From Sphaerolaimus hirsutus (lineage: Eukaryota > Nematoda > Chromadorea > Monhysterida > Sphaerolaimidae): a stretch of DNA of 64,000 nt. A model generated the notes under the pieces. It saw nothing but the letters and a program-made list of their open reading frames with translations. It searched no databases and had not been told where the DNA came from. Position 1 is the first letter of the stretch. The number at the start of each line of letters is the position of its first letter. The position numbers and the translations under genes were made by a program. Of this stretch, positions 8,040-61,943 are shown piece by piece. The DNA is taken from assembly GCA_964036195.1 (NCBI GenBank), contig OZ038450.1:9984701-10048700 (forward strand), in the 5' to 3' direction.

Positions 8040-11000
8040 ATGATGGCCACCGCGGCGGCGCACAGCAGCATGGACGGGCAGCAGCAGCAGCAGCAGCAAC
8101 AACAACTACACAGCACGTGGCTGCGGCTGCAGTCGGCCATGGGGCCGGCGCCGGTGGTCGCCGACGAGTCCGGCTCGGTCAAGTGCAACAGCGCGCCGGT
8201 CGACCTGACCGACAAGCCCGTCAAGCAGGAGTCTGGCGCTGTTGTTGAGCGTGTCGACCGCGCCGACGTGCTCAACAATAATGATGTCAATGTGGGCGAT
8301 GGTGTGAAAGAGAATGTTCACGGTTTGTTGCTTTTGGATTTTTTAAGGCACTATGGTTTTGTATTTGTGTGCGTGTTTCATTAGCGGTCGATGGTAACGT
8401 TTTAAATGAGTTTCGTTTCAGAAGCTGACCTGATGGCCATTGGCAAGCAGCAATGTGAGAGCCCGTTGTCGGAACATGGCTCTGGTTCTGCTACAAGTGG
8501 CTCTCCGAAATCAAAACGCAAACAGTACCAACCGCAGCAAATTGATCAAACCCAGCCACAGGATCCTGTCGAAGAAAATAGTGAAAATGGTCAGTTTTTG
8601 TTGTGCTGCGTTTAATTTACCTGGTGCTAATTATCGTTATTTTGTCAACAATTAATGTTTTCATACAGTCGTAGACAACGAGCTGAAGGATGATGAACCG
8701 GCAGCCAAAGTTCCGCGCACTGAATCAGCCGACACAAATATAACCACATCCAATGATACATCTGCGAACGGAGGCGGCAACAATTCGGCAGAGACGGTGC
8801 AAACGCGACTGCAGGAGATCCTTGAAGCGCAGCAGCGAGTTTACATGGCTTACTTGTTGCGCGCAGGGCAACATCAACAGCACAAACTGGCGCACCAGCA
8901 TAACAGCCAATTGCAATTGGTTGGTTTGAAGAGAGCAGTTCATTTGAAAACATCACTCATTTAGTCTATCTACGTCATTTCAAAATACGCGTCTCACTCA
9001 CACAGGCTCGCGACACGAGCGCTGGACATCACGGACCGCAACTATCCGCCGGAGCACAGCCACAGCTCACACCGACCGGCGTCGGGCAGGTAGCTCTGTG
9101 CTCGCCCACGGTGACCCAGCAGTCGGCGCTGCAGCATACGCCGCCCTCGCTGCTGACCACAACTGCCGCAGCGGCGGACAGTCGGCCGCAGACCCAGACC
9201 AAAGTGGTCCCGCTGCAGCCGTCGCCCAAGGAGATCGCCGGCCTACGCGACACGGTCAAAGCGCAACTGCTGAGCACCGTGTCCGCCCAGGTAGACAAAC
9301 TCTTCGAGGAGTACAGCAGGCAGGCGGAGGCGCGCTTCTCGCAGCAACAGAGTCACATGCGCGCGTACCTGGAGCAGCAGGTGATGCAGCAGGCGCTCGT
9401 GCAACACGCCGCTGCCGCCTCATCGGCCGCGACGACAAACAGTACTGCGGGAGCGGCAGCGCAGTTCAACACGCTCGCGGCCACCCGCTACCCGTTCTAC
9501 GCCATGGCGCACAACGCCGCCGCCGCCGCGGGCTATGCTCAAGCTTCACCTGGCAGCATCTTCCCTCATGTCTGTCATACTACATAAAATACCATTATGA
9601 GATTGTAAAATTTCGATTCCATCATAGTCACGCTCGTTTCTCGTTTACAGACCACACTGCAGCACTATTTGTCTGCGCTAACGAATGCGGGCCACCAGCA
9701 TCAACAACAGCAGCACAACATTGGCGCCAAGCTCATGCAGCAGCACCACGGCTCTAATGGCGCCATTCCACCCACTGCATTGTTTGCAGGTTCGAGTGAA
9801 CACTTGGTGCTAGTCCCAGTCCTTGTAAAATGCAAATCGTCAAAAGTCATGGGAAGTGCCCTGCAAAATCGTAACCGATTCGTAACCAAAATCGTAACGT
9901 TTCCATGACTTCGACACTTCGCATGACATTTGACATTTTACAGGGTTTGGGACTGCCCCCTGGCACAGTAGAATGACATTATCTGTGAAGAATTTTGCTG
10001 AACAAACACATGTGCTTTTGCAGGCTCTGCCGTGCTGCGCGATGCAGCAGCTGCCGCAGCCACCGGCGGCTCACCGAGTTCACCGTTCGGCAACGCGTTC
10101 CGCAAGAAGCGCAGCAAGGTGACCGACACGAGACTGAACAAGGCGCCCGCGTGCCGCGACGACGGCGTGTGCAGGAACTCGCCGTCGAACAACGGCAACA
10201 TGCCCTCTGCCGCCGCCACACCTAGTAAGCATCTTTCCTTACTGATATATATTTTTGAAATATTAAGTAAGAAAATAAATAAAAACTCATATTTATTTAA
10301 ATTTTCTCCTGTTTTTTTTTTCTCAGAGAGATTTAATTATACTTTATTAATGTGAAGAGAATATAAAAACGTATCTCATTTATTTATATTTATTTTTTCC
10401 ACATTATCTGTAAGAAAGATTTATTTAGGTATATTTTATTTTTGAGCGATTATATGAGATAATATTGAATCATAAATATTTCCCGAAAATCAACTACCGG
10501 TATTTTTGGAACGCTTGTCGAAAAAATCATTGTAACTTTACATCCCCTTGAAAATTCGTTTCCATCAACTTTTCAGGCTACGTCGGTGCCCCGACCATGG
10601 TGGGGCAGCAACTTTTTGGCATGAAAACTTCGTCCAGCCCCACGGCGCAGTCCGACGACCAAGCCGACGACATGTGCGACGAGGGCATCGACGCCGACGG
10701 AAACAGCACCGGCATCACGTTGGTTCATGTTTTTACAGAAAAATTCTTAAAATTCCAAGTCAAGTCGTCACATGAAGTATACTGGACAGAGGTAACGCTA
10801 CACAATTTATGATACCATAATTTGATGAATAGGGTCACGTTATAAGTGCTGGACAAAATGAACCAAAAGTGCGAGCAATATCATACGTATGATGACATTT
10901 TTTATGTCTGTTCGTTTATTCAGATGAAATATGGGTGATTTCATTGTGAGGTGTGCTATCGGTAGACTATATTTATTTCCCTGTCACCGTTTTCAGCAGC

Positions 11001-14000: not shown

Positions 14001-15135
14001 ATGGGCCCAGTTTCACCTTGGCTGCTTGCATGCGCCCGCGCAGCGCCACATAATGGTCAGCGGGCACACACGTGCGGTCATGCTTATTTCAAGCATGCTT
14101 TACAATTGATGCACCGAGCCCGCTGCAAGCGGCCATCCTTCCATGAAGGAAATAGGTCCTTGATCAATTCTAATTACCTTTTCCGACGGCAGCGAGCCTA
14201 TTCAGATTAGCCGTGACAAAAGCGTGCACAGGTGTGTTTGTCCCCCGTGTGCACGCGGTGTCTTTTGTTGACACATCAGAAGCTACTGCAGCGTTCACCT
14301 AACCATAATGAGGTTGCGTTGTAGACCCGCATGCGCACATTTATTTGCTTCCGTCTCAGTAGACTCCACAAACGATCAACGTGAATACACAAATAGCAAT
14401 AAACAATGAAATACAATCGTAAATCAACGCCAGAATAATCCGCCAAACAAACGTTCAAAGTGCCATTCACTCGCAGGGAGTTCTACTACATCCAGATGGA
14501 GAAGTACGCCAAGCAGGCGCTGGAGAAGGGCGTCCGGTCGCCCCACGAGCTCGTGATCACCGTGGACAGCGAGCTGTACAAGGTGCTCAACCAGCACTAC
14601 AACCGGAACACGCACATACAGGTGAGCGCCGCCTACGAGCTACCTTTGTTGGCTTAGAGCCAAGGCGATATGGGGTAGATTCAATTTAAGCGTCCGGTGA
14701 GCGACAGAACAGTAAGCGTAACGTCGAGCGCCTCACGTTCTGATCGAATAACTCTCAGACCCTGTAAAATGTGATGCAAAGTGTCAAGTCATATAAAAAT
14801 GCCCTGTAAAATGGCAAACGCGTTTTACACGGCATTTTACTGGACTTTAACACATTTGGATGACATTTGATATTCTACAGGGTCTGGAAGTTCCACCCTA
14901 AATCAGGTGAACTATTCCGCCCTTATCCACCCACCCACAAGGTCCACAAACGCAGGTGCCCAGCTCGTTCCGCTCGGTGGCCGAGGCGACCCTACGCGAG
15001 TTTTTCCTATCAATCCAGGCGGGGCGAGATGCCGATCCGGGATGGAAAAAAGCCATCTACAAGGTGATCGCCAGACTCGACGAACACGTGCCAGAGTATT
15101 TCAAAACGCAGACTTTCTTGGAGAGCTTGGAATGA
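8040..15135 (+). CDS. pros: Prospero homeobox transcription factor
   Basis: Ten exons: 8040-8322, 8422-8589, 8669-8919, 9006-9569, 9651-9789, 10024-10224, 10577-10718, 10997-11149, 14477-14621, 14956-15135; all phases agree and give about 741 residues. The N-terminal two thirds is low-complexity (a Gln run near residue 14, then Ala/Gln/Ser-rich stretches), as in this family. The basic segment [10 protein letters not shown] in exon 6 looks like a nuclear signal. Exons 8-10 encode the whole homeo-prospero domain, from [17 protein letters not shown] through [18 protein letters not shown] to the end [11 protein letters not shown]. Prospero proteins bind DNA in the nucleus and drive neural precursor differentiation. 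The start is the first ATG of the open frame (ATGATG). The protein is about half the length of Drosophila Prospero. An intron of 3.3 kb splits the homeodomain at SNF/R. The domain call is certain; the N-terminal exons rest on frame, phase and composition. Confidence 0.93.
9806..9962 (+). repeat. Introner-family element inside prospero intron 5
   Basis: The left arm GGTGCTAGTCCCAGTCC is followed by TGTAAAATG, and the right arm is GACATTTTACAGGGTTTGGG. The two arms are inverted copies. The element sits within intron 5 (9790-10023) without forming its splice sites: using its ends would put a stop in frame. Confidence 0.75.
11150..14476 (+). other. Large prospero intron 8
   Basis: This 3.3 kb intron interrupts the homeodomain codons. 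It is GC-rich in 11290-11580, 12290-12700 and 13290-14060 and carries a CCGTATTT-type fragment at about 12052-12180. I see no exon in it. Its 5' splice site is GTTAAT. Drosophila prospero has a differentially spliced intron in its homeodomain, but I see no U12-type donor here. Confidence 0.6.
12052..12180. repeat. CCGTATTT-type MITE fragment
   Basis: ACCGTATTTCCTCGAATT is followed by C-rich CCCCTCGAAATACCCC and AAATAATAAACCCCCC. This is the left half of the family seen at 6473 and 35227; no matching right end is evident. Confidence 0.55.
14755..14890 (+). repeat. Introner-family element inside prospero intron 9
   Basis: CTCAGACCCTGTAAAATG at the left and GACATTTGATATTCTACAGG at the right are inverted copies. 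An internal GTAAAATGGC motif is shared with the SIRT6 copy. It occupies the middle of intron 9 (14622-14955), whose own donor is GTGAGC and acceptor CGCAG. Confidence 0.75.
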
Positions 15136-16425: not shown

Positions 16426-19400
16426 TCACTTGTCGCCTTGCTGCTGACGCTTCCTGCGGCAGTACTTTCGATGGGTCGGCCAGTGGCCCTGCGATCGAAA
16501 AAAACGAGAATATTTTGTTGCACAATAGTATTTAGTAGTGTGTAGCGGAAACATTTGATCGCATCATCGCGGGGAAATGTGGCAAACGAGTGCACTTTTC
16601 GAACAGAATAGGCCAAAAAAGTTTTTTCCAATCACTTATTCCACATAACGGTAAAAAGAACGTTGTAATACACTGCCAAAAACACGATCGAAGTTCACAG
16701 GGAGCCATGCACATCAGAAACACTTTCAAAATGCCCTGCAGAATGTAATTGATTCCCTGTATCAATTGTCATGCAGTGTGAAAAGTTACACGCCCTTTGA
16801 CACTTTGCATGACATTTGTCATTTGACATACAGTGCCCCAATCAAACCCACCTGCTGACACTCCACACTGCAGTAACTAGTATTCCAACAACAATGATAA
16901 ATCGCCTCGGACTCGCACTGCCAGCACCACTGTTTCTTCTTCACATTGCTGATCTCCCTGCGGTGCTTGTCGCTCAGCCGCGTCAACTCAGTTTTCAGCG
17001 TGTCCCTGTAGCGCTGCTCCAGCTCCTGGCGGGTAGAGTCGAGCTCGTCCTTGAACTGGGCCAGGAGCTCGGTCCGGATGCGCTGCTGATCCGCTAGGAA
17101 TTCCTGGTGCAGCTGTGGAAGGGTGGATTTGATTTATGGTTGGGCGCGATGGGTTGGGGGGTTTATGGGAATCTATACCACACAGACTAACGAGACCAAC
17201 TGTCAACTGGTTCCGATTCCAATTCAAAGCTTTCTGAATAGCCGGCGAAAAGCGTTCAAATGCAAATCGTGTTGCAAATGAACCTGTAGCGTTGAAAGCA
17301 AGGACGTAGCCAGGGGGGGCGGGGGGGCGGCCGCCCCCCCCGCCCCCCCTGGCGCCATTCCCCTACAACAGAGGTTAAATTTTTTTTTTTTGGGGGGGGG
17401 GGGGCGCCCCCCCCCGTTCGCCGGGCTCCGTATACAAGTCGCCCCCCCCCGTTCAAAAATCCTGGCTACGTCCCTGGTTTAAAGTGCACAAAGATCGGCA
17501 TGAAGCATGTGTACACAATCACACGTTACTCGCCACAAGAATTGGGATCGGAGACAGTTGACATAGGCGACGTTGTCAACTATAGTAAGGCCTTTCAATA
17601 GTTCGCATAAGGGAAAACATTTGGTGTAATTTTGTGCCTACGCACACTAGTTTTCACACGAAATTTTGAAAACTGAAAAATCAGCTTAGAACACATTTGA
17701 GTTTACTACACTGAAGTGGCCGTCAACTTCAGTTGATGGAGATTAAAAATGATTCATTCAGGAAAACTCAAACATGTTCAAAGCTCATTTATGAGTTTTC
17801 GAAATTTCGTGTGAAAACTAGTGTGCGCATGGCTATATTTATGTATCTCAGAAGACTGACGGTCACAAAATATGCTTGAATCAGAAGCGCAACCGCTAAT
17901 AATCTGAGAGTGGAATGTTTTGGCACACGTTGACAAACTTGGCAAATCATAAATAGATTCACAAGTGAACTACGGGTGCAATCGAACTTTTCCAACTGAA
18001 AACCCACCTAACTAATTGTCAGACACATGATTGCGCTTTAAAAGGGACACCATAGGCGCTATACACACTGATTTTCTTTCTTTTTTTTGTTGGAAAATCA
18101 GCTTTGAACGCATTTGAGTTTACCGGAATGAGGTGTCCGTCACTTACTGTTGACGGAGATAAAAACACTCATTCAGGTAAACCCAAAACCTTCAAACTTT
18201 ATATGTATGAATGAATTTCCAACTTTCAATTTACAATTTGAATTTTCAATTTACCTATTTACTGGCCGAACTAAATCTTGCCCGTCAAAAGTGCCCCAAA
18301 ACTGATGAAAACGTTCTCCAATGACAATTCCACTTCAGTCTGACGTACGCAACGCAACCGTCTGACACAACCACCACGCCTATAAATACACCCGAGCTTC
18401 CTCGAAAAGCGGTTCACGTATTTATCCAAACACCACAACAGAATACATTGCCGCACCGCAGGGGTCTCCCAGGGGGGGCTGGGGCCAGTGGCGTAGCCAG
18501 GATTTTTGAGCGGGGGGGCGGATTGTTTACGGAACCCGGCGAATGGGGGGGCGGCGCCGCCCCCCCCCTAAAATTTGACCCCTGTAGTAGGGAACTTGTG
18601 TCATGGCGCTGGCGCTATTCGTAAGCGCCACGCCATGGTGTTGGCGCCATTCGTAGGCGCCGCGCCATGGCGCCATTAGCGCCACAGACCGCTGTAAATG
18701 TACGTATTTTACACATACGTATACAGCGACATGGACAGAATTGGGTGCATTTTCACCCAGCTTGAGCCGACCGCGACCCGTGATATAAAAATGCCCGTAA
18801 TGTGAAGCACAAATGCGCGCCAGTGGGTACGCCACTGGTTGGGTGGGGGGGGGGGGGTGGGCTGCCCCCCAAATCCGCCAGCTATCTATCTATCCCGGAG
18901 GCCGCTCAGCTATCTATATCTATCTATCTCGGAGTCAAATTTTTTGGCTATCTATCCCGTAAATCGGCTACCTATGTACCTATCTGGAACGATTTTTGAG
19001 AAACTTTGAGGCCACTCCAATTTTCACCCAAAACCGCTAATTTTCGTGCATTTTTAAACTTTTTCACCTTCTAAATCGCGGCTTTCGCCTATACACATGT
19101 TCATATACCGTAAATGCTTGAATAGTTTCCCCTGTAAGACGAGTGAGGAAAAAATAATTCCCCCTTGAATAATTCCCCCATTAAGAGATTTGATCAATTT
19201 GCTGTGCCTAATTTGACCAAAAAGGGCACGATATTGTGTAAATGACGCACATTCCGTGAAATGACTTGATCGAAACAGGCTCAAAAAATTTGACGAAATA
19301 ATAATTCCCCCTCGACTAGTTCCCCCTCAAAAAAAATCTGACGAAATAATAATCCCCCATGGAGATAATTCAAGCAAATAGGTACCTATTTTTAGCCATT

Positions 19401-35226: not shown

Positions 35227-36157
35227 TACCGTATTTCCTCGAAATACCCCCGGGGGGGTTATTTTTTCAGAGTGGGCATTTTGCGAGGGGGGGGGGGTAA
35301 ACGAGGGAGGTTTATTATTTCGCCAGAATTTTTTTGAAATCCCAGTACTAAATTGTCGTTTTAAAGGTACGTAGACGTAAATAGGGTTCAAACGGGATCC
35401 GGATCCCGGATCCCGTGAAATTCCGGGATTTAGCAGTCCCGATCCCGATCCAGAAACCCCAATCCCGATCCCAAAATCCAAAAATACCAATCCCGATCCC
35501 GAAAACTTTCAAATCCCGATCCCGAGAATTTCCCAAGTCCGGGATCCCGATCCCGGAAAAAATAGTGGAAATTTTAACAAGTGAAAAAATGACATTTATG
35601 CATGCAAAAATGTGAACGCGTCCATTTTATGTCACGTTTCTGGCATCCAACAGTGTTTTGAGAACTTTATGAACAATTGTGAATGCCAGAACAGTGACGA
35701 AAATCTCTATCCCTAGACCCCAATCCCGATCACGACCAAAATGCTAATCCCGATCCCGATCCCGTGACCCCAATCCCGGCCAATCCCGATCACGAAATTT
35801 CAAAATACCAATCCCGATCCCGAAACCCCAATCCCGATCCCGAAATCTCAAAAAGTGAATCCCGATCCCGATCCCGAAAAGTCAATCCCGTTTGAACCCT
35901 ACTTAGACGTCGAAAAATGCAACAAAAATCGCCATTTATAAGACTCAAAAGACTTGTATAAGTGTGTAGATGTACAAACATTGTCATTGTCTCACAGAAC
36001 AGAGTCATTGTTTTTAACGTGTGTTCTGCATTGCCCGGATGACAAACCGCAGCCTTTGTCATTTACGTTCTCTACACACTAGGTAAATTTAGGGGGGATT
36101 TCGAGGGGGAGGGGGTTATAAGTTCATAGTGAGGGGGTATTTCGAGGAAATACGGTA
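35227..36157. repeat. CCGTATTT element interrupted by a GATCCC element
   Basis: TACCGTATTTCCTCGAAAT at the left and TATTTCGAGGAAATACGGTA at the right are inverted ends. The interior is split by the GATCCC-array element at 35382-35901. Confidence 0.7.
35382..35901. repeat. GATCCC-array MITE (copy 1)
   Basis: Ends TAGGGTTCAAACGGGAT and ATCCCGTTTGAACCCTA. Both arms consist of CCCGAT/GATCCC hexamer runs. A conserved core carries TGGCATCCAACAGTGTTTTG and GTGAATGCCAGAACAGTG. A clean target duplication is not visible for this copy. Confidence 0.75.
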
Positions 36158-40910: not shown

Positions 40911-43900
40911 TCATTTCGTGTCCACAAACATCGCAACGTCTGTACAAATTCGCTGCACCACAGACTCAACAGAATCAGGCTCAGGTTTAGCAACAGATTC
41001 AACCATCAAGCATTCAGATTTCACAGGACTATCAAAATTGCACGGTGTGGGTGCATCAGAGAAAGTATCCATGGAATTATTGCTGGTCTTGCGCCTTTTC
41101 ACCGAAGGAGATTCTTCTTCAAAGTCACGATCACTGCGCCTGGGGGCAGTCCCAGACCCTGTAAAATGTCAAATGTCATGCAAAGTGTCAAAAATCATGT
41201 AAAATGCCCGGTAAAATGACAAACACGTTAGCAATTTTACCGGAAATTTTACTTGACTTTTGACAATTGCATGACATTTGACATTTTACAGGGTCTGGGA
41301 CTGGCACCTGGAATGCGGCACCAGGCACGGCGCCACAAAGTCAGCCACAGGCACTTGCAAAATGCCGCACAACTCTCGCATGACATCGTCCACCTTGGCG
41401 TGCAGCACCAGGTCCGCCTTGGAATGTATTTTGGTCTTCTGTAAATTGACGATGACCATCTTGCCGCCGTTCTTGCGCGCGAGCAGCGGCAACGAGTTGG
41501 CGGGCTGTATTCTGAGGCTGGTGCCCAGGCACAAGCTGAGATCGGCCTGCCGCGAGTGCCGTTCTGAATCGGCCAGCGCAGTTGACGGCAGCTCGTCTTC
41601 CCAGTCGAGGGTGGTATCGCGTAGGCGACCCCTGTGAGCGTGCGACCATAGCGAGTGGAGCACTTTGAGCAGAATCCTACCATAATTTAATGAATAAAAC
41701 CTTGTGACAAATTTCGTAATCAATTATTCCACAGTAAAAACTAAATATTACGATGAAAACAGGTATCATTCTCGGTTCTTTATTCAGATGGGTTATGGTA
41801 GGTCTCCAATCTCCATACTAAGTTTGATGTCCGCTGAGTATAGCTCAATCTGATATGGGCGAAAAAGCGGACCAGGGTGGAACCGACCTGCATGGACGAC
41901 CGGTGGATCGAGGCATCCCGCACGTACCACCAGTGAACTTCTGACCCACGCTGCCGATCACGTGCGAGCGGATCTGCCGCCTGAGCGTATGGGCCCCCAC
42001 ACACTGGATGTCAACTGAATTCGTGTCAACTAAATGTCAACTGAATTTAAGTGATACTGCGATTTCAACTTATCTATCTGATAGAGCATAGTTAATTTTA
42101 CATCATGACACTTCATTTTCATTGTCCCTGTTAAGTGTGATGCTTTTTACAAACTTCTTGTTTTAGTCAATTGACACTGAGTTGACGCGAATTTGCGATG
42201 TCAACTAGTGTGTGTGGGCCCATTACTCCGATTTACAAGTGAAAAAAATTTTTTTGTCCAACCCTAGGTCCAGGGGTCTCCTAGGGGGGGGGGGGTACCC
42301 CCAAATCGCCCAGCTATCTATCTATACCGGAGGCAAAAATTTGGGCTACTATCCCCTAAACCCCCCCCCCTAAATCGCCCAGCTATCTACCTATATATCT
42401 GCAGCGATTTTTGAGAAACTATACACCAATTTTCGCCAGCTATTTTCGAGTAGGGATGACCAGCGCTCTTTTTCAAGCGCTTTTTTTTAAAAAAACGCCG
42501 CTTTTTTTTAAAAAAAGCGCTAGGGTCCCAGCACTTTTTTTTTCAAAAAAAGCGCTGGCAAAAAAATTAGTACTTATGCACTAGGTATTTTGCAAAATTT
42601 TTGCGCGCAAGCGCGCAATTTCACACACAAATTGACATTGGTGGTTGTTTTCATTGGTTTTGTGGTATTTTTAGTGTCATTGCTTCTATTCCTGCATGCT
42701 ATCATGTAATAATAAGTTGTGATATGTTAGTGTAGTATTGAATATTCAGCCAATGTGTTCCCACATACTTCTACAGCGGGAAACATTAGTCTCAATGTAT
42801 TAGCCTTCCCTTATAGCCTTATTTGTAAGCACTATTTCATGCCTAACTTTTCACTTAACTTCACGAAACATTCACAAACAGTGATATACATTATGAGTCA
42901 ACATAAAAAGTATTTTTTGGCAGAAATCACCACTTATCATGTTATCCCATGACTACACAGCCATTCTATGGCTATATATCATCACAAGTACTGCCACTTG
43001 TCTGATATACCTGTATATATTGATACAGAACCATACTTGGGAGCTTTTTAGGGAACATCGCGACATTTTTTGAAAAAACGCGAAAAATACGCGTTTTTTT
43101 AAAAAAAGCGCTTTTTTTAAAAAAAGAGGGGCCGTTAAAAAAAAGCGCTTTTTTCCATCCCTATTTTCGAGAAATCAAAATCGCTATTTTTCATACGTTT
43201 TTATAGATTTTCACCTCCAAAATCACTAGTTCATGCGTCTAACTGCCAATTTTTAGTACTATATGCGCTTATACCCATTTTTCACCTACTTTTAGCGATT
43301 TTTCTCCCTTTTCTTCGTTATACACCTTGTAAAAGCCTAAATATATTTCGTACTCCCGCACCCCCCCCCATTTTTCCCAGCTATCTATCTCGGAGGCCGC
43401 TCGGCTATCTATCCAACCCCAAAATCTACAATACCCCTGCCTAGGTAGGGTTCAAACGGGATCCCGATCCCGGATCCCGTGAAATTCCGGGATTTAGCAG
43501 TCCCGATCCTGATCCCAAAACCCTAATCCCGATCCCGAAATCCAAAAACACCAATCCCGATCCTGAAAACTTTCAAATCCCGATCCTGAGAATCTCCCAA
43601 GTCCGGGATCCCGATCCCGGAAAAAATAGTGAAAATTATAAAAAGTTAAAAAATGACATTTTTGCGTGCAAAAAAGTGAACGCATACCCCCAGCGTCCAT
43701 TTTATGTCACTTTTCTGGCATCCAACAGTGTTTTGAGACCTTTATGAACAACTGTGAATGCCAGAACAGTGACGAAAATCTCTATCCCTAGACCCCAATC
43801 CCGATCCCGAAAAATGCCAATCCCGATCCCGTGACCCCAATCCCGGCCAATCCCGATCCCGAAATCTCAAAACCCAATCCCGATCCCGATCCCGAAACCC

Positions 43901-47415: not shown

Positions 47416-50400
47416 TCACACACTCGGCCGCAACTGGTGTATTCTCCGCAGCCGTTCGGGCAAATGCTGCCACAGCTCATCCGGCTTGTGCAGGAGACTG
47501 GCCGACTCTGCGCTCAACTCAGCCACCGGAAGTTCGCGCACGCTGAATTCGCGCAGCAAGGTGGCGTCGCCGGTGTGCGCGTAGACGCGCGTGTCGATTA
47601 TGCGCGCCAGCACGGCATCCACTCGGAGGTAATATCTGAGTTATTGAATGGAATCCAGTCCAGCCAAGCCCACATCAGAGTTGTAAAAAAACCCAAACTT
47701 TTTCAAAGTATACGCTTCAAGCCAGGGACGTATCCAGGATTTTTGAGCGGGGGGGGCTGCTTGTTTACGGAGGCCGGCGAGCGGGGGGGGGGGCTCAGCC
47801 CCCCCCCTAAAATTTTACCTACAAAATGGCGGAATGGAGCCATGGCGCTGGCGCCATTAGTTGGCGCCATGCCATGGCGTCATTGGCGCTGGCGCCAGCG
47901 CCATGGAACGATGTATATGTATGTAAATATACATACAAAAACAGCAAAAAGCACACCATTGAGTGTATTTATAACGATTTGGAGCAAATCTGATGATAAT
48001 ACCTTATGTGTGGTGAAAAATGCGCGCTTGCGCGCAAATTTTTTTACGCTGACGTTGAAAAAGTCGCATTTTCCGGTCACTTTCAGGCTTCGCCCCGGGA
48101 AGGGGGGGGGGCTGCAGCCCCCCCCCGCCCCCCCCCCCTGGATACGGCCCTGCTTCAAGCATACACCGGCATTCAAGCGTTTACGTAAAATATTTAGTTT
48201 GTATTCACCCCCGGCCTCGAGTACAGAAAACTTCCGAATTTTTTTACTTTTACACATGAGTAAACGGAAAACCTTTGAGTGTGTGAGTATTTTATTTTAG
48301 TGAGTATTTTAGCAAATTTTCCAATTTTCACTAACATAACTTATTTAGATATTTTCACCTTAAAATTCGCCTATTATCTTTTTTTTGGGTTTATCTGATT
48401 TTATATACCCATTTTTTTTCTTTATTTTTTGTTGCGTTTCTCTATTTCTCCCTTCAATGCCTTGAAAAAACCTATACAAAAGCCGATCAGAAATACGTTT
48501 TCTGCAATCGAGTACTTTCAATAAATATACGTAAAAGCGAATGCAGGAACATTTTTCAGAGGAAACGTAAATGAATTTACTCTTTACTCGAGTATACGTA
48601 TCTATCGAGTAAAAGTAAATACGTTTCAAGAACTATGTCCCACACCGTGTCAAATGTAGGGTTCAAACGGGATTGACTTTTCGGGATCGGGATCGGGATT
48701 CACTTTCTGAGATTTCGGGATCGGGATCGGGATTGTGGTTTCGGGATCGGGATCGGGATCGGGATTGGTTTTTTGAGATTTCGGGATCGGGATCGGGATT
48801 GGCCGGGATTGGGGTCACGGGATCGGGATTGGGATAGGCATTTTTCCGGGATCGGGATTGGGATAGGCATTTTTCCGGGATCGGGATTGGGTTCTAGGGA
48901 TAGAGATTTTGGCCATTTTTCTGGCATTCACAGTTGTTCATAAAGGTCTCAAAACACTGTTGGATGCCAGAAAAGTGGCATAAAATTGACGCTGGGGGTT
49001 TGCACCCACTTTTTTGCATGCAAAAACGTCATTATTTCACTTTTTATAATTTCCACTAATTTTTCCGGGATCGGGATCCCGGACTTGGGAGTTTCTCGGG
49101 ATCGGGATCGGGATTTGAAAACTTTCGGGATCGGGATCGGGATTGGTATTTTTGAGATTTCGGGATCGGGATCGGGATTGGGGTTTCGGGATCGGGATCG
49201 GGACTGGTAAATCCCGAAATTTCACGGGATCCGGGATCGGGATCCCGTTTGAACCCTAGTCAAATGTCATGCAAAAAGTGCCACTTCAACCGTAGGGTAC
49301 GGTATGGTAAAAGGGTAAGTGTAGGGTAAAACAAAAACACGCCCCACCTAGCGAGCACGAACAGCGCCGAGGGCATGCATCGCACGCGGACCGTGTAGGC
49401 GGCGGCGCCGTGGTCGGCCAGCTCGTCCTCGAACAGGGGCACCTCGCCGTAGAACGCGATCGGCTCGCGGCGACGCAGCACGTCCAAGTTGATCTGTTCC
49501 GCTGTTTCTTCTGCCTGTGGTGATTGGAGAACGTATAGAGGAGATTGGTCGCGCAAATAGGCCTAAAATTGGAGAAAATTAGTTGAAAGAAGTACCTTGA
49601 ACCCTCTCAGCGTGCCATCAAAGTGAGTGCAAAATGTCCAGTCGTACAGTTTACTGCGCTTTGAAAGTTCGGACACATCAGCTCTAGATGATTGCCACTC
49701 AGCACTGGCGGATACCTGCGAATGAATGTTTTTATCGTCATCCTTGAAGTACAAAATCGTCTCTACAGTTGGCACATAAAAATGTTTTTGAACAATTTCT
49801 AAAGAAAAGTAAAGTAAAAGCATTTTCTCTGTGAAGTCGGTAATTTAAGGTATCTCGTTGCTGACAAGTATGCCACGTATTTCTAGCTATTTCAACTGTG
49901 ATTTCAATGAATATTCTGCAGCAAGAAGCTGAGATCACTCAATCGAAAACCAAATGAATATGAACAAACAAAAATTCTATACAAATTGCATGCTTGCAAA
50001 ATTTGCAAAAACGGGAACTTTTTTTCCCATGTCAGTCACAAAAGTAATTCGAATGCTGTGGTACTGGGAACGAACAGTAATTTCCCCAATAAAAATGCCA
50101 GAAAAATTGCACTGAACCTGCAGTGACGGATCCGCATTTGACGCGCTGACACACTTCAAGGCATCCAAAGCGCTCCACTCTATAGACGCTCCGGACTCCT
50201 GATGTGTCACTGAAAGCTTGTTGTGGTCAAAAATCATTTCTGGGAATTCTCCACAATTCGGAACGGACCTTCGGAAGACGCACACCTGCAAAACGAATTT
50301 TATTAAGCCCTTCATGGCAAGAACAGCGAACAAAATGTCAAAACCAACATTGCAATCGTCTTGGCTTTTAGAATCATCTTCAAGATGGGCGCAAGTAGAT

Positions 50401-50766: not shown

Positions 50767-53700
50767 ATGCACCGATTGGCGTTGAAGCAGCTCGCTCAAG
50801 TCAATGTCCGCGCGGCGGGCACGTCCAGGTCGGGCTGCAATGTCGAGTCCACCAACCAAGTTTGCAGTCATGCACGGTGCGTTTTATCCCTTCATATTCA
50901 CGAATTTGACGACATTTTGTGTGCATTACTGTCCCCCGGTGAACGGAACGGGCCCGTATGAGAAATTGGCAGCCGGCCAAAATTTCGAAATCGGTTTAAC
51001 ATAAATAAAATGGCTAAAATAGGTTTATATCCATGTATATGGACGGAAATAGCTACCTATTATGGAGGTGAAAATTTGGCAAAATGTAGCAAATTTGAGC
51101 GATTTTGAGCTTTCACTTTCTTTCGTGTAATACGCAACCGGTAACCTGGGCGTGGGCCAAGTTCTCGTGCGTGATGCGATCTGGGTGAACGTAGACGAAC
51201 AAACACGCGAGTTATCACACTTCAGCTTTTAGTGGCGTGTCGGACACCGTACGTCCCTTTGAACTCGCCGTCTAACTTGCAGGCGTGAACGTACTACTGG
51301 CCAACAGGAGGCGTCTGCTTCGGGTTCTGGGGCTCACGCATCTGGCACATGCGATTGGAACCTGCACAGCCCCATCGCTCTCACGGTTAATTTTTAGAGT
51401 TTGTGTTGTCGGGTTTTAGCTTTTCAACTTTTTGTGTAATCTTTCCAACGACCCAATAGTGTTTCTGAAAGAGATATTGGAAATCAATTAAAAATTCACT
51501 TGCCGATCTCTTATATGCCTTTAATATTGTAGTACGCTCGTCTAACTGCAGGCAGTAGCGGCCAGCTTGGCATGCGGCCACCAACTGTGCGAGCTGCGTT
51601 CCGAAAGCTCCAAACTCGCGCGCGACTACACAGACTGGCTACTGCCCGGTGCCGCGGCCGGGACGAAGCCGCGGGATGTGGACATCGAGCAGGACCCGCG
51701 GCAGGGCGTATGCGCGCTCAGGGCGGTTACAAGGCGAGCCTTCGCCCAGCCCGTGTATACTACCCATCGTGTCTTAGATACGGACGGACTACCTCTCGAT
51801 CGAGATGTGTCTGCAAATTCGAATTGCAGTCGCGCAAATAGTGATGATTCGACAGTCGTGGCGAGGTTGAGCGGTGTTGCGAAGAAGCGGGTTACTTTTG
51901 ACGTGCAGTGTCAGACGACGGTACGTTGTTTGGTGTTGTTTGGCGCTGATTAGGGACGTTATTTTAAATCAGTATCGATCAGATTCTTCAATAAAAATTT
52001 GTAAAGAATAGATTTTCCCATTCCAGGTGCAATGCTTGCATAATGTGCTGAAAACAAATCAGCATTGAATTTACTACAGTTGATTTTTTTTTATACCCGT
52101 CAACTGTAGTTGAAACACCCCTCATTCCGGAAAACTCAGATGCGTTCACAGCTGTTTTACAAGTTTCCTTAATTTTTGGCAGTAAACTACTGCGTGGGGC
52201 GATTACACAGCGCTGTTGTATAAAAATAAGAGTATAAAAAGTGTTGATATAGTCTGGAAAAATGTATTATGTATTGATTCCTCATAAATGTGCCATCCAC
52301 TCAAAAAGTTTTGTCATGGAATGTAACGTAAATCTGGGGGCCAGTTCCGCAAGTGGAGAAGTGAGAAGTAAAATGGCAAATGCGAAGTGAAATGGCAAAT
52401 GCAATGTGAAATGGCAAAAGCGAAGTGAATTGACAAGTAAAATGACAAACGTGAAGAGAAATTACTGTTTTATTTTTTACTTTTACCGTTTTACGTTTTT
52501 GCCAATTTACTTGCCACTTCACTTTTGCCATTTTACTTATCACTTCTCAATTTGCGGGACTGGCACCTGGTTTATGTTAGTGTGGTCTTTCTTTTATCCC
52601 ATTTATTATCCTTCATTGTTGCAGCCCGCGTCAAATTCGTACATAAGAAAGCTTGCGAACTCGACAGCCGCATTCGAAATGCTGCTCAATGGTCAGGAAT
52701 CGCAATTGAACCTGAGAATTGGACTGTCTGCCATTGAGGCTGGGCTAAAATCTGAGGGATTCAAATACATCACAAAAGCATTCGAGACAAGTCCCGATGA
52801 TGTGCTAGCTATCTACAATTTGGCCATGTGCTATGCAAAGGGTTATGGAGCTCAGCGAGATTATAAGAAAGTAAATCAGTTTTTCACTTTCTTCCAATCG
52901 AAATTTTGATTTTGATGGACATTCGCCATGCGTAGCATTGAACAATTTGTTCTTTTGGGAAAATAGTATTAAATAATATCTCATAAAATATCACAAAAAT
53001 AAAATAAAATAAATTACCTCAGAGACAAAGCAAGAATAAATGTAAATGTGATATTCTGTATGTTAAAAAATGTCAGAATATATCTAAAAAAATCTGATAA
53101 AATTTCATGGACAACCGTGGAAAACATTCCATCAATCATCCGATGTATTTTTTTATACAATTCTCCCATCGATTTTTCAACGCTAACCACGCGAAAACTC
53201 GCTACACTTCAGGCCTACACTTTGTGGCAGCGCGGCGCGGAGCTGGGCGACGGCGCGTGCATGTACCAAATGGCCGTGTGTCTGTGCCGCAAACTGGTCG
53301 CGGCGGACACGAGCGGCAGCGCGGCGGGCGACAACAGGATGGACTTGGCGCGCGCTTTGCTTGCGCGGGCGCACAGAAAGGGATTTGAAGATCAAATCGT
53401 TGGTTGTTTGTTGTCCTTTTTTGTTTTTCGGATATTGGTTGGTTCAGAGAGGCTGTTTTAGGCACTGGTTTTTTTTGAGGGGACGAGCAAGCAGAAATCA
53501 AGATTTCTTTCACCCAGCGTACCTGCCCGGATCACAAAATTTCGTGATCAGCATTTCCCCACATTTTTGCCTCGGCCCAGATCTATAGCGGAGTGGCCTC
53601 TGACTTGACCGACTTATTTAGACAGCCAAAAAAATACCCCGTTCGATAGTTTCAGGGGTTTCAGCCGTTATATCGCCTATTCTAAACGTTCGATTTTTCC

Positions 53701-55705: not shown

Positions 55706-55850
55706 CAGGGGCCAGTCGCTCAAGTTGACAACTGCTTTACTCTTGACTCTTCACTGGACTCCTCACTTTGCTCTTGACTTGCGGAACAGTCAAGTAACAA
55801 CGTCAAGAGTCAAGAGTAAATCACTTGTCAACTTGCGGGACTGGCTCCAG
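55706..55850. repeat. Inverted-repeat element with GGGCCAGTC...GGGACTGGC ends
   Basis: CAGGGGCCAGTCGCTCAAGT and ACTTGCGGGACTGGCTCCAG are inverted. The interior repeats CTCTTGACT. The termini resemble 52334 and, less closely, the introner family, but this copy is intergenic. Confidence 0.6.
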
Positions 55851-57401: not shown

Positions 57402-60400
57402 TCAAGCGAGCAACTTCTCAAAGCACTTGTGGCAGTAGGGCTTGTCCTGGTGCTCCTTGAAGGTGCCCTTGTTGAGCTCGCGACGGCAGAACGTGCACAC
57501 GAAGTGCTCGGGGTGGAAGCGGCGGCCGTTCATGGCGGTGACGCACCGGCCGGCGATGGGCTGGGCGCACACGTGGCACAGCGTGCCGCGCAGCTGGTGG
57601 TAGTGCCGCTCGCAGTACGGCCGGCCCTGGTGCGCGAAGAACGAGCCGCCGTCGAAGCGCACGCCGCACTCCTGCGAGCCGGGCCGCACGAGCTCACTGA
57701 ATTCACGTGCTCGAGCAGGCGTAGGCTCCCTGGCCATGTAAACCCGCCGGCCATGTAGACCGGGCGGACGTGTAATTCTACTCTGCGGCCATGTAGACCC
57801 ATATGTAAGTTTTTCCTCGTCATATTTTGACTTAATTCAAGGAATATCTTCACTTTATAAAGTGAAAAATGACAAAAAACATCAAAAATATACACTTCAA
57901 ATCATCAGATACTAATGACATTTTTTATCATATTTGACCGTATTCGAATGTGTCCACCACTTGAAAAAGTGACAAAAAGGTAAAAATAGTCATTTTTGAC
58001 GCTACATGACCAGCGGGTTTACATGGCCACCGACACAGGGACCTCGAACACGGACACGATGCGTGGAAATGAACTGGGCAACCACGCAGTGGAAAAAAAC
58101 CCTGGTGCATGAGCCATTCGAGCAAGTGACAACTAATTAATAGAGGTCGCTAACTAAATCCACACATGGTTTGCGTGTGAGTTTCTTCTAAGTTCTAGTG
58201 TCCATAAACTGCGGAAGAGGGAAGCGGTTGACAAAAACATGCGGGTGATGACCTTAGTTGGAGCCTGTGCCTCTCCGAATGTAAACCCGCCCCGAATGTA
58301 TACCCGCACCGAATGGAAGCATACCCGCTCCGAAGGTAAGCCCGGCCCGAAGGTAACTGATGCTACCTTCGGGCCGGGCTTACCTTCGACGCGGGTATAC
58401 ATTCAGAGCGGGTATTCATTCGGGCCGGGTTGGAGATAAGCGGAGGGGGGGGGGGCACGACTGGCGGCGCGTGTGCACCCATCAGCGCGGTGCGGCAAAC
58501 ACAAAGGGCAAATAACGATACAAAATGATACCCGAAATGAGTTTAAATTCAATTTCGGGTATCATGTTCAACTGCTAATTTTCAACGTATTCGTGAAAAC
58601 GACATGAAACTAGCAGTTGAAATTAAAACCCGAAATTGAAATTTTGTACAAAATTTCAATTTCGGGTTTTTATTTCAGCTGCTAGTTTCATGTCGTTTTC
58701 ACGAATACGTTGAAAACTAGCAGATGAAAATTATTCCCGGAAATGAGGAGTAAAGATACCCCAAAATGTCGGCAGATCGTTTTCCAAGATGTTGTTTTCT
58801 GTTCAATTAAATGTCAGCAGATCATGTTGCACAAATGTTGCTCGAAAAGACACCGAATCGCATGCCGAACCGGGGGGGGGGTCACTCATCAAACATCAAA
58901 CATCGGTTGCGGTCTTGGCGGCAAAATATAAAGAGCCATGCATTGTTGGGCCTCATTTGTATTGTTATTTGCCCTTTGTGTTTGCCGCACCGCGCCGATG
59001 GGTGCACACGCGCCGCCAGTCGTGCCCCCCCCACTAATCTCCAACCCGCCCCAAATGAATACCCGGTCCGAATGTATACCCGCTCCGAAGGTAAGCCCGG
59101 CCCGAAGGTAGCATCAGTTACCTTCGGGCCGGGCTTACCTTCGGAGCGGGTATGCTTCCATTCGGTGCGGGTATACATTCGGGGCGGGTATACATTCGGA
59201 ATGAGCCTTGGTCCCTTAGTTGTGCAGTTATTCTAATGCGACAACCCGTCAATACTTGAGTTCAGAAACTAGTGCATGCTGAATGGCCGATCCTAACTCA
59301 GTTACCGCTAATTAACGAATAGTTCCTTGAACATTGTCTAATTTCTCAATCGGGAGAATTAAGAATTTTCAGCATATTACCAGAATTGCTTTAACATGTA
59401 ATCTAAATTTATGAATTTTGTTAAAAATCTGATGAAATGAGCTCTCCCTTAAATAATTTTCCAGTAAAAAAGGATGAAAAATGCCCCAGGCAACTATTCG
59501 ACGATTTTCGGTATTTTAAGCGAAGGAAGTCGTTATCAGAAACAAAGTGCTTCAAATTTTCTGGTGCATACCTGCTGTTCGTTCATCATAAAAAATTTGC
59601 AGACAGCACACATTGTCTCGAAGATTTAAGTTCTTTTCACCAATGAATCATTTGACAAATATTCAAAGAGTTTTTTTTCAGTAATCCTAAACTAGGCACC
59701 AGATACTACAAAATCTAGTAAACAAACAGTGCATATTTGAGCAATAAGAATGCAACCTATACAAAAAGACACGTACTTTCGGAAGACACACAAATTACGC
59801 ATTCCAAAAATTATATAGACACAAATAACTCACACTATATCAGTTAGAATGCCCTTCAACAGTAGCTAAGCAGAAGTGGGAACAAAAGATGTGAACAGAG
59901 TATGTGACGAAAGATCGTGCATTACTGGAAGCAAAACAAACGTTAGTATAGTACAGATAAGATCCTACCGAGAAATGTAGAGGGTGCATAACACATAATA
60001 GTTAGCAAAATAAACAAAAGATGGTCACAGAAATATGTAAATACGAAATGTCAAAGCGGCTACCAAGCACCAAAAAGGTTGCGCAAGCCATTAAAAAAAA
60101 ATTCTAGGACGCACCTGGCAGACGAAGCACTCCGGGTGCCAGTGTGTATTGATCGCGGTGATGTAATTGTTTGTGATGGCTTTCTTGCAGCCGTGGCACC
60201 GCGGAGCGAACATGCCGAAGTAACAATTTCGGCAGAACGCCTTGCCTGCGACAGAATCGATAAAATGACTAGACTTACAAAAATATTGCGGCAGAAGTTT
60301 TTTTTTCGAAATGTGAGCAACCGGGGTTCAATCCCACTAGAGGAACAGTTGCGATAAGTTATAGACGGAAAGTAAATTCACGAGTGATATGTGAATTCAT

Positions 60401-61943
60401 AATAAATCATCATTTGCGAATTTACTTTCCACTTAAACCTTATCACTTTACTCAGCGGTGTTGGCACCCCCATTAAAACTGGACTGGATCTCGATTACCG
60501 AATCGGGAACGTTTGGATCGGAACAAAAAATGTAAAAAAGTCGAATGAAAATAAAATAAATCATTATTAACTTTTTTCCATTTTACATGATATTTGACAA
60601 ATTTGCATGGTATTTGACATCCCTGGGATCCCCTACAGAACATCCATGAAAATTGGACAGTATTTTTTCGGAACAGCAGTTTCAGCAATCTACAACCCGT
60701 ACATATGGGATAAAACGCACCATCTTTCTCGTGAAATCCATCGTCGCCGAAATCCGCACCGCACTGTGCACAAAAGAAGTGGTCCACGTGCCAAGTTCGG
60801 TCCAGGGCGGTCACACACCGCTGAAATGTGCAAACGATTCGGCATTTAAAAATCACTATCATCATCATCAAAACTATCAACCAAGTAAACCAACATCTTT
60901 GATGGGTCCATCACAATGGGCACAGCGAGGTGCAAACAGATCATGATAGTCCGCCTCGCAATAACCTTTGCCGGCCCTCTCGTAAAAATTCTTCTCGCCC
61001 AACTCCTCGCCGCAGTGGACGCACACAAAGTGCTCCGGGTGCCACATTTTGCCCAGCGCGATGACAACCTGGGGGCAGTCCCAGACCCTGTCAAGAACCC
61101 TGTAAAATGTCAAATGTCATGCAAAGTGTCAACAGTCATGTAAAATGGCCTGGAAAATTCCAACAAAAATATTTTCCAGGCAATTTTCCATGAGTTTTGA
61201 CACTTTGCATGACGTTTGACATTTTACAAGGCTCTTAACAGTGTCCAGGACACACACCTGCCCCACGATGGTCTTGCCGCAGGCGGCGCACTCGCCCTTG
61301 GGGATGGTGCTCACGCCGTGCTTGACCATGTCGGCGCTGAGGTTGCCCAACATGCTGTCCAACGGGTCGTCCATGGTGGCCGCTCTGGCGCTTGTAGTGG
61401 TCGTTGTGGTTGTTGTGGCAAGTTGCTGCTCGTAGTGGCGCGCGCGCTCACGCACTGGCACTTCTGGCGCGTCGACTGGGAGAGTAGGTAGATTGATTTT
61501 GTAAAAAAACCCTTGTTTTGAGCGATTTGAAAAATCCGACCTTTTAAAATGATAATAGATTTTTTTAAATCGATGCGATTAAAAAGTGGAAAACATCCTC
61601 AGACAGTACTTTGCAAACATCTGCGGTTGCACACGGCAGCTTTCAGAGATTGGGCACGCATCTGCCATTGTTCACGCACCGAAATCCAGATAACAAACAC
61701 GCGTCACAAACAAACACAAACGTCAAAATTACACCCAAACCTAACTCACCAAATTCCTCTTCGACGCTGCGGGGTCGTTGCTGCCGCTGCGGCGAATAGT
61801 CGCGCTGGTGCAGTCGACGCAAATCGGCGTTCTTGGGGCCGGGCGATTTGCGGGACCACGTGTAGGTCAGCTCGCCCGTGGGCGACTTGCTGAAGCGCGC
61901 TCGCAGTGTGCCGCCGGGCGAACGTTCGCCGCTGCCAGGAGAA
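57402..61943 (-). CDS. Pxn: Paxillin, C-terminal part with four LIM domains (5' end not in window)
   Basis: Six exons: 61750-61943, 61258-61475, 60895-61068, 60721-60820, 60115-60245, 57402-57671. They encode a Ser/Arg/Pro-rich linker ([11 protein letters not shown]...SVEEEF), a Thr run, the final LD-like motif [20 protein letters not shown], then four LIM domains: [11 protein letters not shown]...[18 protein letters not shown]...[31 protein letters not shown]; and [20 protein letters not shown] with [17 protein letters not shown]. Order and spacing are those of paxillin, the focal-adhesion scaffold linking integrins, vinculin and FAK. The upstream LD motifs are missing. The first visible exon opens in mid-codon (phase 2), so the 5' exons lie beyond the right edge or in introns I could not resolve. 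LIM1 is split by an introner-like intron; LIM3 by a 2.4 kb intron with a large foldback. Confidence 0.93.
58275..59199. repeat. Compound foldback (palindromic) element in a paxillin intron
   Basis: The outer arms (about 58275-58550 and 58935-59199) are long inverted copies with CCGAATGTATACCCGC and CCGAAGGTAAGCCCGGCC units; each arm has its own GGGCCGGGCTTACCTTCG hairpin. An inner inverted repeat (about 58560-58740) has CATGAAACTAGCAG arms on both sides of AAATTTCAATTTCGGG. No coding frame. Confidence 0.8.
61069..61257 (-). mobile_element. Introner-like element forming a whole paxillin intron
   Basis: On the gene's strand the intron starts GTGTGTGTCCTGGACACTGT and ends GGTCTGGGACTGCCCCCAG. 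Inside, TGTAAAATGTCAAACGTCAT and TGACATTTGACATTTTACAG are inverted arms shared with the SIRT6 intron. Exon joint [14 protein letters not shown] restores LIM1 exactly (human GQVVTAMGKTWH), so the splice sites are secure. Confidence 0.88.

What the first reader, a model, noticed from the sequence alone, without database searches (positions are those of the whole stretch)
61069..61257. A second exact introner splits the first LIM domain of paxillin
Seen: same terminal and arm sequence (GGTCTGGGACTGCCCCCAG, TGTAAAATGTCAAA) as the SIRT6 intron, in an unrelated gene 20 kb away. The joint IVGQ/VVIALG is fixed by the very conserved LIM1, so there is no doubt about the splice sites. Two independent, exact element-intron matches in one 64 kb window imply many more genome-wide. 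Inference: an active or recently active intron-generating family.
Basis: partly seen in the sequence, partly recalled or inferred. Interest (0 to 1): 0.87.

Follow-up and report, generated by a model that had tools for sequence, protein, structure and literature searches.

The report
Transposon that became paxillin's intron
A short hairpin-shaped jumping-DNA element that copies the letters CAG where it lands sits exactly between the two splice points inside an animal's paxillin gene, so splicing would remove it cleanly; it looks like a way for a transposon to make a new intron, although no RNA data and no related species could be checked here.

Summary
On the minus strand, 61069-61257 is a 189-nt GT...AG intron splitting paxillin LIM1 ([14 protein letters not shown]). 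It consists wholly of a 186-bp foldback element plus one copy of a 3-bp CAG repeat. A second intron of the family (41140-41307, 168 nt), in SIRT6, is also exactly element + CAG. The window holds about eight family members including these two; the other six lie in longer introns (4), upstream of an uncertain exon (1) or outside recognised genes (1). Two not at splice sites (52.4 kb, 55.7 kb) have related tips and exact CWG duplications, so the CAG is a target-site duplication, not just splice consensus. CWG duplications and G-rich tips fit the published NuwaI group (PHIS/Harbinger); a transposase was not systematically sought. Proposed mechanism: the element inserts at an exonic CAG; CAG plus the tip GTG makes the donor; the other tip (CCCC) plus the second CAG makes the acceptor; splicing restores the empty site. 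This is a MITE-type introner, a known kind. 'Recently active' is not supported (78-87% identity). Splicing is inferred from reading frames. Whether paxillin had an older intron here could not be tested: the window's genome and eukaryotic relatives were out of reach.

The parts
61069..61257 (-). Intron in paxillin LIM1; 186-bp element (61072-61257) plus the second CAG copy (61069-61071)
61258..61260 (-). First CAG of the 3-bp target duplication; last codon (Q) of the upstream exon
61069..61071 (-). Second CAG copy; forms the AG of the 3' splice site
61072..61158 (+). Inverted-repeat arm carrying the 3'-splice-site tip (inward GGGGCAGTCCC); one search gives the arm as 61078-61158, extended to the tip by eye
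61171..61257 (-). Inverted-repeat arm carrying the donor tip (GTGTGTGTCC); one search gives 61171-61251, extended to the tip by eye
61258..61475 (-). Paxillin exon: LD motif and first part of LIM1 (...[11 protein letters not shown]); its upstream end is inferred from an AG and the frame
60895..61068 (-). Paxillin exon: rest of LIM1 ([14 protein letters not shown]...GPIKD)
41140..41307 (-). Second exact element-intron, in SIRT6 (element 41143-41307 plus CAG 41140-41142); 168 nt
9807..9959 (+). Family member inside a longer intron (9790-10023) of what I read as prospero; flanks TTG/CTG; not an exact intron
14740..14905 (.). Diverged member inside the intron (14622-14955) of the homeo-prospero domain
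16699..16840 (.). Diverged member near the donor of a ZMYND8/11-type MYND intron (16489-16851)
52337..52566 (-). Second subfamily, same tips, exact CTG/CTG (CAG in sense) duplication, upstream of a putative exon; not at a splice site
55709..55847 (.). Member with related tips (GGGCCAGTCGC / GAGCCAGTCCC), exact CAG/CAG duplication, outside any gene I recognised
60558..60639 (.). Weak partial member inside the paxillin LIM2 intron (13.7 bits)

Best explanation
The intron is a non-autonomous foldback DNA transposon (MITE) with arms of about 80 nt and a 3-bp CWG target duplication, of the type published for NuwaI (PHIS/Harbinger) transposons. It inserted into the coding sequence GGG-CAG-GTT of a LIM1 without an intron at that site. 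Insertion duplicated CAG. The 5' tip (GTG...) next to the first CAG makes the donor CAG|GTG. The other tip (...CTGCCCC) followed by the second CAG makes the acceptor CCCCCAG|G, with a YTNAY branch-site-like motif whose A is at -23. Splicing removes the element plus one CAG and restores the empty-site mRNA. Shown: sequence anatomy, duplication, frames. Inferred: that it is spliced, that it created the intron, and that a NuwaI-like transposase moved it.
For: Intron = element + TSD with no other sequence, twice, in two genes. Related tips and exact CWG duplications at two copies not at splice sites, 52337-52566 and 55709-55847; 200,000 random pairs at similar distances show equal CWG triplets in 0.061%. 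4 of 5 two-tip copies have an exact 3-bp CWG duplication; the fifth (9.9 kb) has TTG/CTG. NuwaI: 5'-CWG-3' TSDs, TIRs usually starting GGG, animals only (PMC4482050 section 7 read). YTNAY with A at -23 in both introns, the nearest AG starting only 2 nt beyond it. The paxillin donor matches 8 of 9 consensus positions. Long hairpin, z = -16.2 against 200 shuffles, leaving GT and AG at its open base. Retention puts stops in frame in both genes.
Against: No RNA evidence. No orthologue without the intron was seen; an older intron at this LIM1 position in other animals was not excluded. NuwaI assignment rests on TSD and tip letters alone, one tip being GTG or GAG rather than GGG, and the paxillin arms (81 nt) exceed the published TIR range of 12-61 bp. 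The element ends were set by eye. A blind scan for CWG-flanked inverted tips (at least 12 of 16 matching) gave 5 pairs, of which only 2 are family tips, 1 lies inside a family member and 2 look unrelated; it missed paxillin, 52.4 kb and 9.9 kb. The SIRT6 donor is weak (6 of 9). Six of about eight family members are not exact introns. The downstream SIRT6 exon has no conserved match.
Confidence: 0.72

Rival explanations
1. An ancient paxillin intron already lay at IVGQ|VV; the element inserted into it at or near its splice site, and all old intron sequence was later lost, so the element replaced an intron rather than making one.
For: LIM2 of the same gene has an intron one codon away from the equivalent place (GPIKD|RCVTAL), so introns near this spot in LIM domains are not unusual. 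Four family members do sit inside longer introns. Human gene structures could not be consulted; my recall of them is uncertain.
Against: No non-element nucleotide remains in either exact intron, and the same exactness occurs independently in SIRT6. The CAG duplication spans the exon edge, as insertion into the exon itself predicts.
Confidence: 0.2
2. The introns spread through RNA (reverse splicing of a spliced intron), as proposed for fungal introners, and the inverted repeats are incidental.
For: Intron boundaries equal element boundaries in two cases.
Against: Copies with related tips and CWG duplications lie at places that are not splice sites, one outside any gene I recognised and one antisense to the nearest putative exon. 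The fungal introners so interpreted lack TSDs and TIRs (PMC9860276).
Confidence: 0.03
3. The paxillin element is not spliced exactly; an alternative donor or acceptor inside the element is used, adding residues to LIM1.
For: Other AGs start at -21 and -33, and further GTs lie in GTGTGTGT.
Against: Those AGs alone give 19 or 31 extra nt, out of frame; an in-frame combination (donor +2, acceptor 19) would lengthen the spacer between LIM zinc ligands by 7 residues. The AG at -21 starts 2 nt from the likely branch A.
Confidence: 0.05

Closest known systems
Introners with TIRs and TSDs (Gozashti et al. 2022, PMC9860276; outline, abstract, section 4 and passages seen)
   Same: Similar introns in unrelated genes, similarity to both splice sites, TIRs, TSD; one splice site carried by the element and the other co-opted from the TSD (their Fig. 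2B/C legend); spliced product keeps the mRNA length.
   Different: Here the TSD is CWG and supplies both the exonic CAG before the donor and the CAG of the acceptor. The word Harbinger does not occur in that paper's main text.
NuwaI transposons, PHIS superfamily (PMC4482050; passages and section 7 seen)
   Same: 5'-CWG-3' duplications; one G-rich tip; animals.
   Different: No transposase or SANT gene seen here (not systematically sought); the two-tip copies are 139-230 bp foldback MITEs; tips vary at base 2 (GT, GG, GA); paxillin arms longer than the published TIR range.
Noncanonical GA/GG-donor introns of the copepod Eurytemora affinis (PMC5714493; part 1 of 2 of the text read)
   Same: Many apparently recent introns in an animal with obligate AG before the donor; this family's tips also occur as GG and GA.
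   Different: There the third intron base is almost always A; here it is G. All eight introns listed use GT (one after correcting a one-base slip). A link is speculation.
DNA-transposon introners of Micromonas/Aureococcus (Huff et al. 2016; recalled, paper not held)
   Same: Non-autonomous DNA transposon creates an intron on insertion with TSD-assisted splice sites.
   Different: Different hosts and TSD (recalled); no sequence relation tested.

Membership tests
Introner (intron-generating transposable element) | Several introns in unrelated genes share sequence up to or near both splice sites | tested here: met
   paxillin and SIRT6 introns, homologous along their length; only 2 in this window
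Introner (intron-generating transposable element) | Intron absent at the site in close relatives (de novo gain) | not testable with these tools
   window genome search unanswered (10 requests); no paxillin relative confirmed in the two collections scanned
Introner (intron-generating transposable element) | Element is spliced out of mRNA | not testable with these tools
   no RNA data; frames and stops only
DNA-transposon-type MITE | Terminal inverted repeats | tested here: met
   paxillin 81-nt arms 86% complementary; five two-tip copies
DNA-transposon-type MITE | Fixed-length target-site duplication | tested here: met
   3-bp CWG exact in 4 of 5 two-tip copies; fifth TTG/CTG
NuwaI (PHIS superfamily) | 5'-CWG-3' TSD | tested here: met
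NuwaI (PHIS superfamily) | TIR usually beginning GGG | tested here: inconclusive
   GGGG (4) or GGGC (1) at one tip of each of 5 copies; the other tip is GTG (4) or GAG (1)
NuwaI (PHIS superfamily) | TIR length 12-61 bp (published range) | tested here: inconclusive
   paxillin arms 81 nt by the repeat finder; where the TIR proper ends in a foldback element is unclear
NuwaI (PHIS superfamily) | DDE transposase and Myb/SANT protein in an autonomous partner | not tested

The most novel reading that the evidence does not exclude
A NuwaI-like transposon whose CWG target preference is itself the proto-splice site: any insertion at an exonic CAG in the right orientation yields CAG|GTG...CCCC|CAG and so an exact intron in any reading phase, the main change needed from an ordinary GG tip being one G-to-T at the second base of one tip. 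Such a family could have been a general intron source in an animal lineage, and target choice rather than later selection would explain CAG|G at new introns.
Probability: 0.35. Interest if true: 0.82.

Novelty: new member of a known kind. Interest (0 to 1): 0.6.

Why it matters
Introners were found in only two animal groups, and in no land plants, in a survey of 3,325 eukaryotic genomes (PMC9860276). A family whose target duplication equals the splice consensus gives a simple, testable route by which an ordinary cut-and-paste transposon makes exact introns, and bears on why new introns sit at CAG|G. It also gives exact tips and a target rule with which the rest of this genome and its relatives can be searched.

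Tried and rejected
Longer duplications (CCAGG, CAGGT) looked possible from SIRT6 or paxillin alone; the 52.4 and 55.7 kb copies restrict the shared part to CWG, so a 5-bp-TSD superfamily was dropped. A claim that all copies are intronic was dropped when the 55.7 kb copy was found outside any recognised gene. The ZMYND-type intron was considered as a third exact case and rejected: the element covers only its donor side and the tip letters do not match. A link to copepod GA/GG-donor introns was considered; third-base preference differs. Two weak profile rows were dropped: 49.2 kb (9.7 bits, equal to the best of 20 Markov windows) and 43.6 kb (4.5 bits). A 28-base pattern from the element core gave 0 in viral contigs and 0 in genome contigs, and the paxillin LIM region gave 1 pattern match in each but no confirmed locus; these are viral and prokaryotic collections and may leave out records near the window's own genome. 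Papers on paxillin-family gene structure with LIM intron positions were not found (passages of two reviews, PMC5316197 and PMC3227459). 'NuwaI' with 'intron' gave 2 papers, both unrelated by title. Introner papers: listings only, 14 of 14, 20 of 23, 30 of 44, 10 of 356, 12 of 31; passages of PMC12879420 and PMC13326754. Rfam: 0 matches. Pfam gave no hit for several pieces I had taken for a mitochondrial ribosomal protein gene and a repeat-protein gene.

In one search the 52.4 kb left boundary was set one base off and read as no TSD; one search repeats it at 52337 and finds CTG/CTG. In one search the homeo-prospero donor was printed one base early (14621; it is 14622). In one search the upstream paxillin exon was taken from 61481, six bases too far; its likely start is 61475.

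Full report
WHAT IS THERE. Paxillin lies on the minus strand. Its LIM region reads, by exons, 61258-61475 (upstream end inferred), 60895-61068, 60721-60820, 60115-60245 and 57402-57671; the joined protein has four LIM matches (Pfam E 7.1e-64) and its best PDB match is paxillin (7qb0, E 8.9e-58). The intron named in the finding is exactly 61069-61257. It splits LIM1 at [14 protein letters not shown] in phase 0. Joining the exons gives a complete LIM1; keeping the intron, though its length (189) is a multiple of three, puts stops in frame. The SIRT6 intron is 41140-41307, 168 nt; it too has in-frame stops if kept and joins two open stretches. The SIRT6 match to PDB chains ends about 10 residues before the junction (query residue 98-101 in the ten sirtuin-6 rows), so the downstream SIRT6 exon is supported by frame only.

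THE ELEMENT. Both introns are one foldback element. In paxillin the arms 61078-61158 and 61171-61251 are 86% complementary; the intron RNA folds at -112 kcal/mol against -45.5 (sd 4.1) for 200 shuffles, z -16.2, with the GT and the AG at the open base of the hairpin. A profile search found further members at 9804-9965, 14740-14905, 16699-16840, 52367-52574 and, weakly (13.7 bits against a best of 9.7 in 20 first-order Markov windows), 60558-60639. A scan with the two tip sequences gave 22 matches at <=3 mismatches (2 to 7 in ten Markov resamples) and 105 at <=4 (35 to 63), and pointed to one more member, 55709-55847. That makes about eight with the two exact introns. Six of the eight lie in introns: two in paxillin, one in SIRT6, one in a homeo-prospero domain (Pfam), one in a ZMYND8/11-type gene, and one at 9.9 kb in an intron that I assign to prospero from the flanking coding sequence and a homeodomain-part hit about 1 kb downstream, the nearest long frame itself having no Pfam hit. 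The copy at 52.4 kb lies upstream of a putative exon that Pfam did not recognise; the copy at 55.7 kb is outside any gene I recognised.

THE TARGET DUPLICATION. Five copies keep both tips. With the element ends set by the inverted repeats, four of five have an exact 3-bp repeat: CAG/CAG in sense for paxillin and SIRT6, CTG/CTG on the plus strand (CAG in sense) for 52.4 kb, and CAG/CAG for 55.7 kb; the 9.9 kb copy has TTG/CTG. SIRT6 alone would allow CCAGG and paxillin alone CAGGT, but what all four share is CWG. In 200,000 random pairs at similar distances, equal CWG triplets occurred in 0.061%; the ends were chosen by eye from the repeats, so this is a guide, not a strict test. A blind scan of the window for inverted tips (12 of 16 or better) flanked by equal CWG triplets gave five pairs: SIRT6, 55.7 kb, one inside the 14.8 kb member and two that look unrelated; paxillin, 52.4 kb and 9.9 kb were not among them. 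The 52.4 and 55.7 kb copies matter most: they are not at splice sites, so their CAG cannot be splice consensus.

HOW IT WOULD WORK. Reading in the sense of the gene, one tip is GTGCCAGTCC (GTGTGTGTCC in paxillin) and the other ends in GGACTGCCCC. At a CAG target this gives CAG|GTG as donor and CCCC-CAG| as acceptor; the intron is the element plus one CAG, and the spliced message equals the empty site GGGCAGGTT (paxillin) or TTCCAGGCG (SIRT6). In both introns a YTNAY motif has its A at -23, and the nearer AG starts 2 nt beyond it and so is likely skipped (the skipping is inference from general knowledge of splicing). Other YTNAY motifs occur at -30 (SIRT6) and at -35 and -42 (paxillin). The paxillin donor fits 8 of 9 consensus bases, SIRT6 and the plain tip 6 of 9; of the six other introns scored, five were 6 or more and one was 5. 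The paxillin tip differs from the family tip at +4, +5 and +6, with +5 and +6 changed to consensus; this may be selection after insertion, but it is one case. In the opposite orientation, or at CTG, the same element would give no GT...AG at its ends; the 9.9 kb copy (CTG side) and, if its neighbouring exon is real, the 52.4 kb copy (antisense) fit that. Insertion into an exon, splicing, and gain are inferred.

WHO MOVES IT. NuwaI transposons of the PHIS superfamily are described as having CWG duplications, TIRs of 12-61 bp usually starting GGG, and occurrence in 16 animal genomes (PMC4482050 section 7, read). One tip of each of the five copies here starts GGGG (four) or GGGC (one); the other starts GTG (four) or GAG (one). 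This fits NuwaI in part. No transposase was seen and none was systematically sought; the paxillin arms (81 nt) are longer than the published TIR range.

AGE. Paxillin and SIRT6 copies match at 140 of 161 gap-free columns (K80 0.143) and at 78% over 168 columns in the local alignment. The 9.9 kb copy matches them at 123 of 148 and 125 of 150. The family is not shown to be recently active.

WHAT IS KNOWN. Introners with TIRs and TSDs, including families that carry one splice site and take the other from the TSD, are established (PMC9860276: outline, abstract, section 4 and passages). That survey found introners in two animal groups; copepods are named. So this is a new family of a known kind. 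A link between introners and a CWG-duplicating (NuwaI-like) transposon was not found in the paper searches made, which cover an open-licence library only and whose listings were partly cut.

WHAT IS OPEN. No RNA; no relatives; host unknown; the window's genome could not be searched. The main rival is an older intron at this LIM1 position. The paxillin LIM2 intron lies one codon from the equivalent place, which keeps that rival alive. Against it stands the absence of any non-element base in both introns.

Noticed in passing
window 16489-16851 (-): In the ZMYND8/11-type MYND intron the diverged element begins about 20 nt after the donor CAG|GTGGG, nearly the spacing of the exact introns, but the tip letters do not match and the 3' half of the intron is unrelated.
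   Followed up: partly
window 58274-59200: Large nested inverted repeat (arms 176 nt, 94% complementary, with further arms inside at 58448-59032 and 58549-58746) with 17-nt spaced units, inside the long paxillin intron.
   Followed up: no
window 35382-35917, 43446-43936, 48644-49258: Three copies of a repeat built of AATCCCGATCCCGA units, two in one orientation and one inverted; longest paired stretches 91-96% alike.
   Followed up: no
window 42567-43082 and 45445-45959: Two direct copies (91-93%) of a longer interspersed repeat about 2.9 kb apart, on either side of a SIR2-domain exon, with inverted relatives near 38.4-38.9 kb.
   Followed up: no
window 60115-60245 (-): Paxillin LIM2 reads [13 protein letters not shown], with C where the PDB paxillin chain 7qb0 has D in CRKDYFDMF (alignment).
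   Followed up: no
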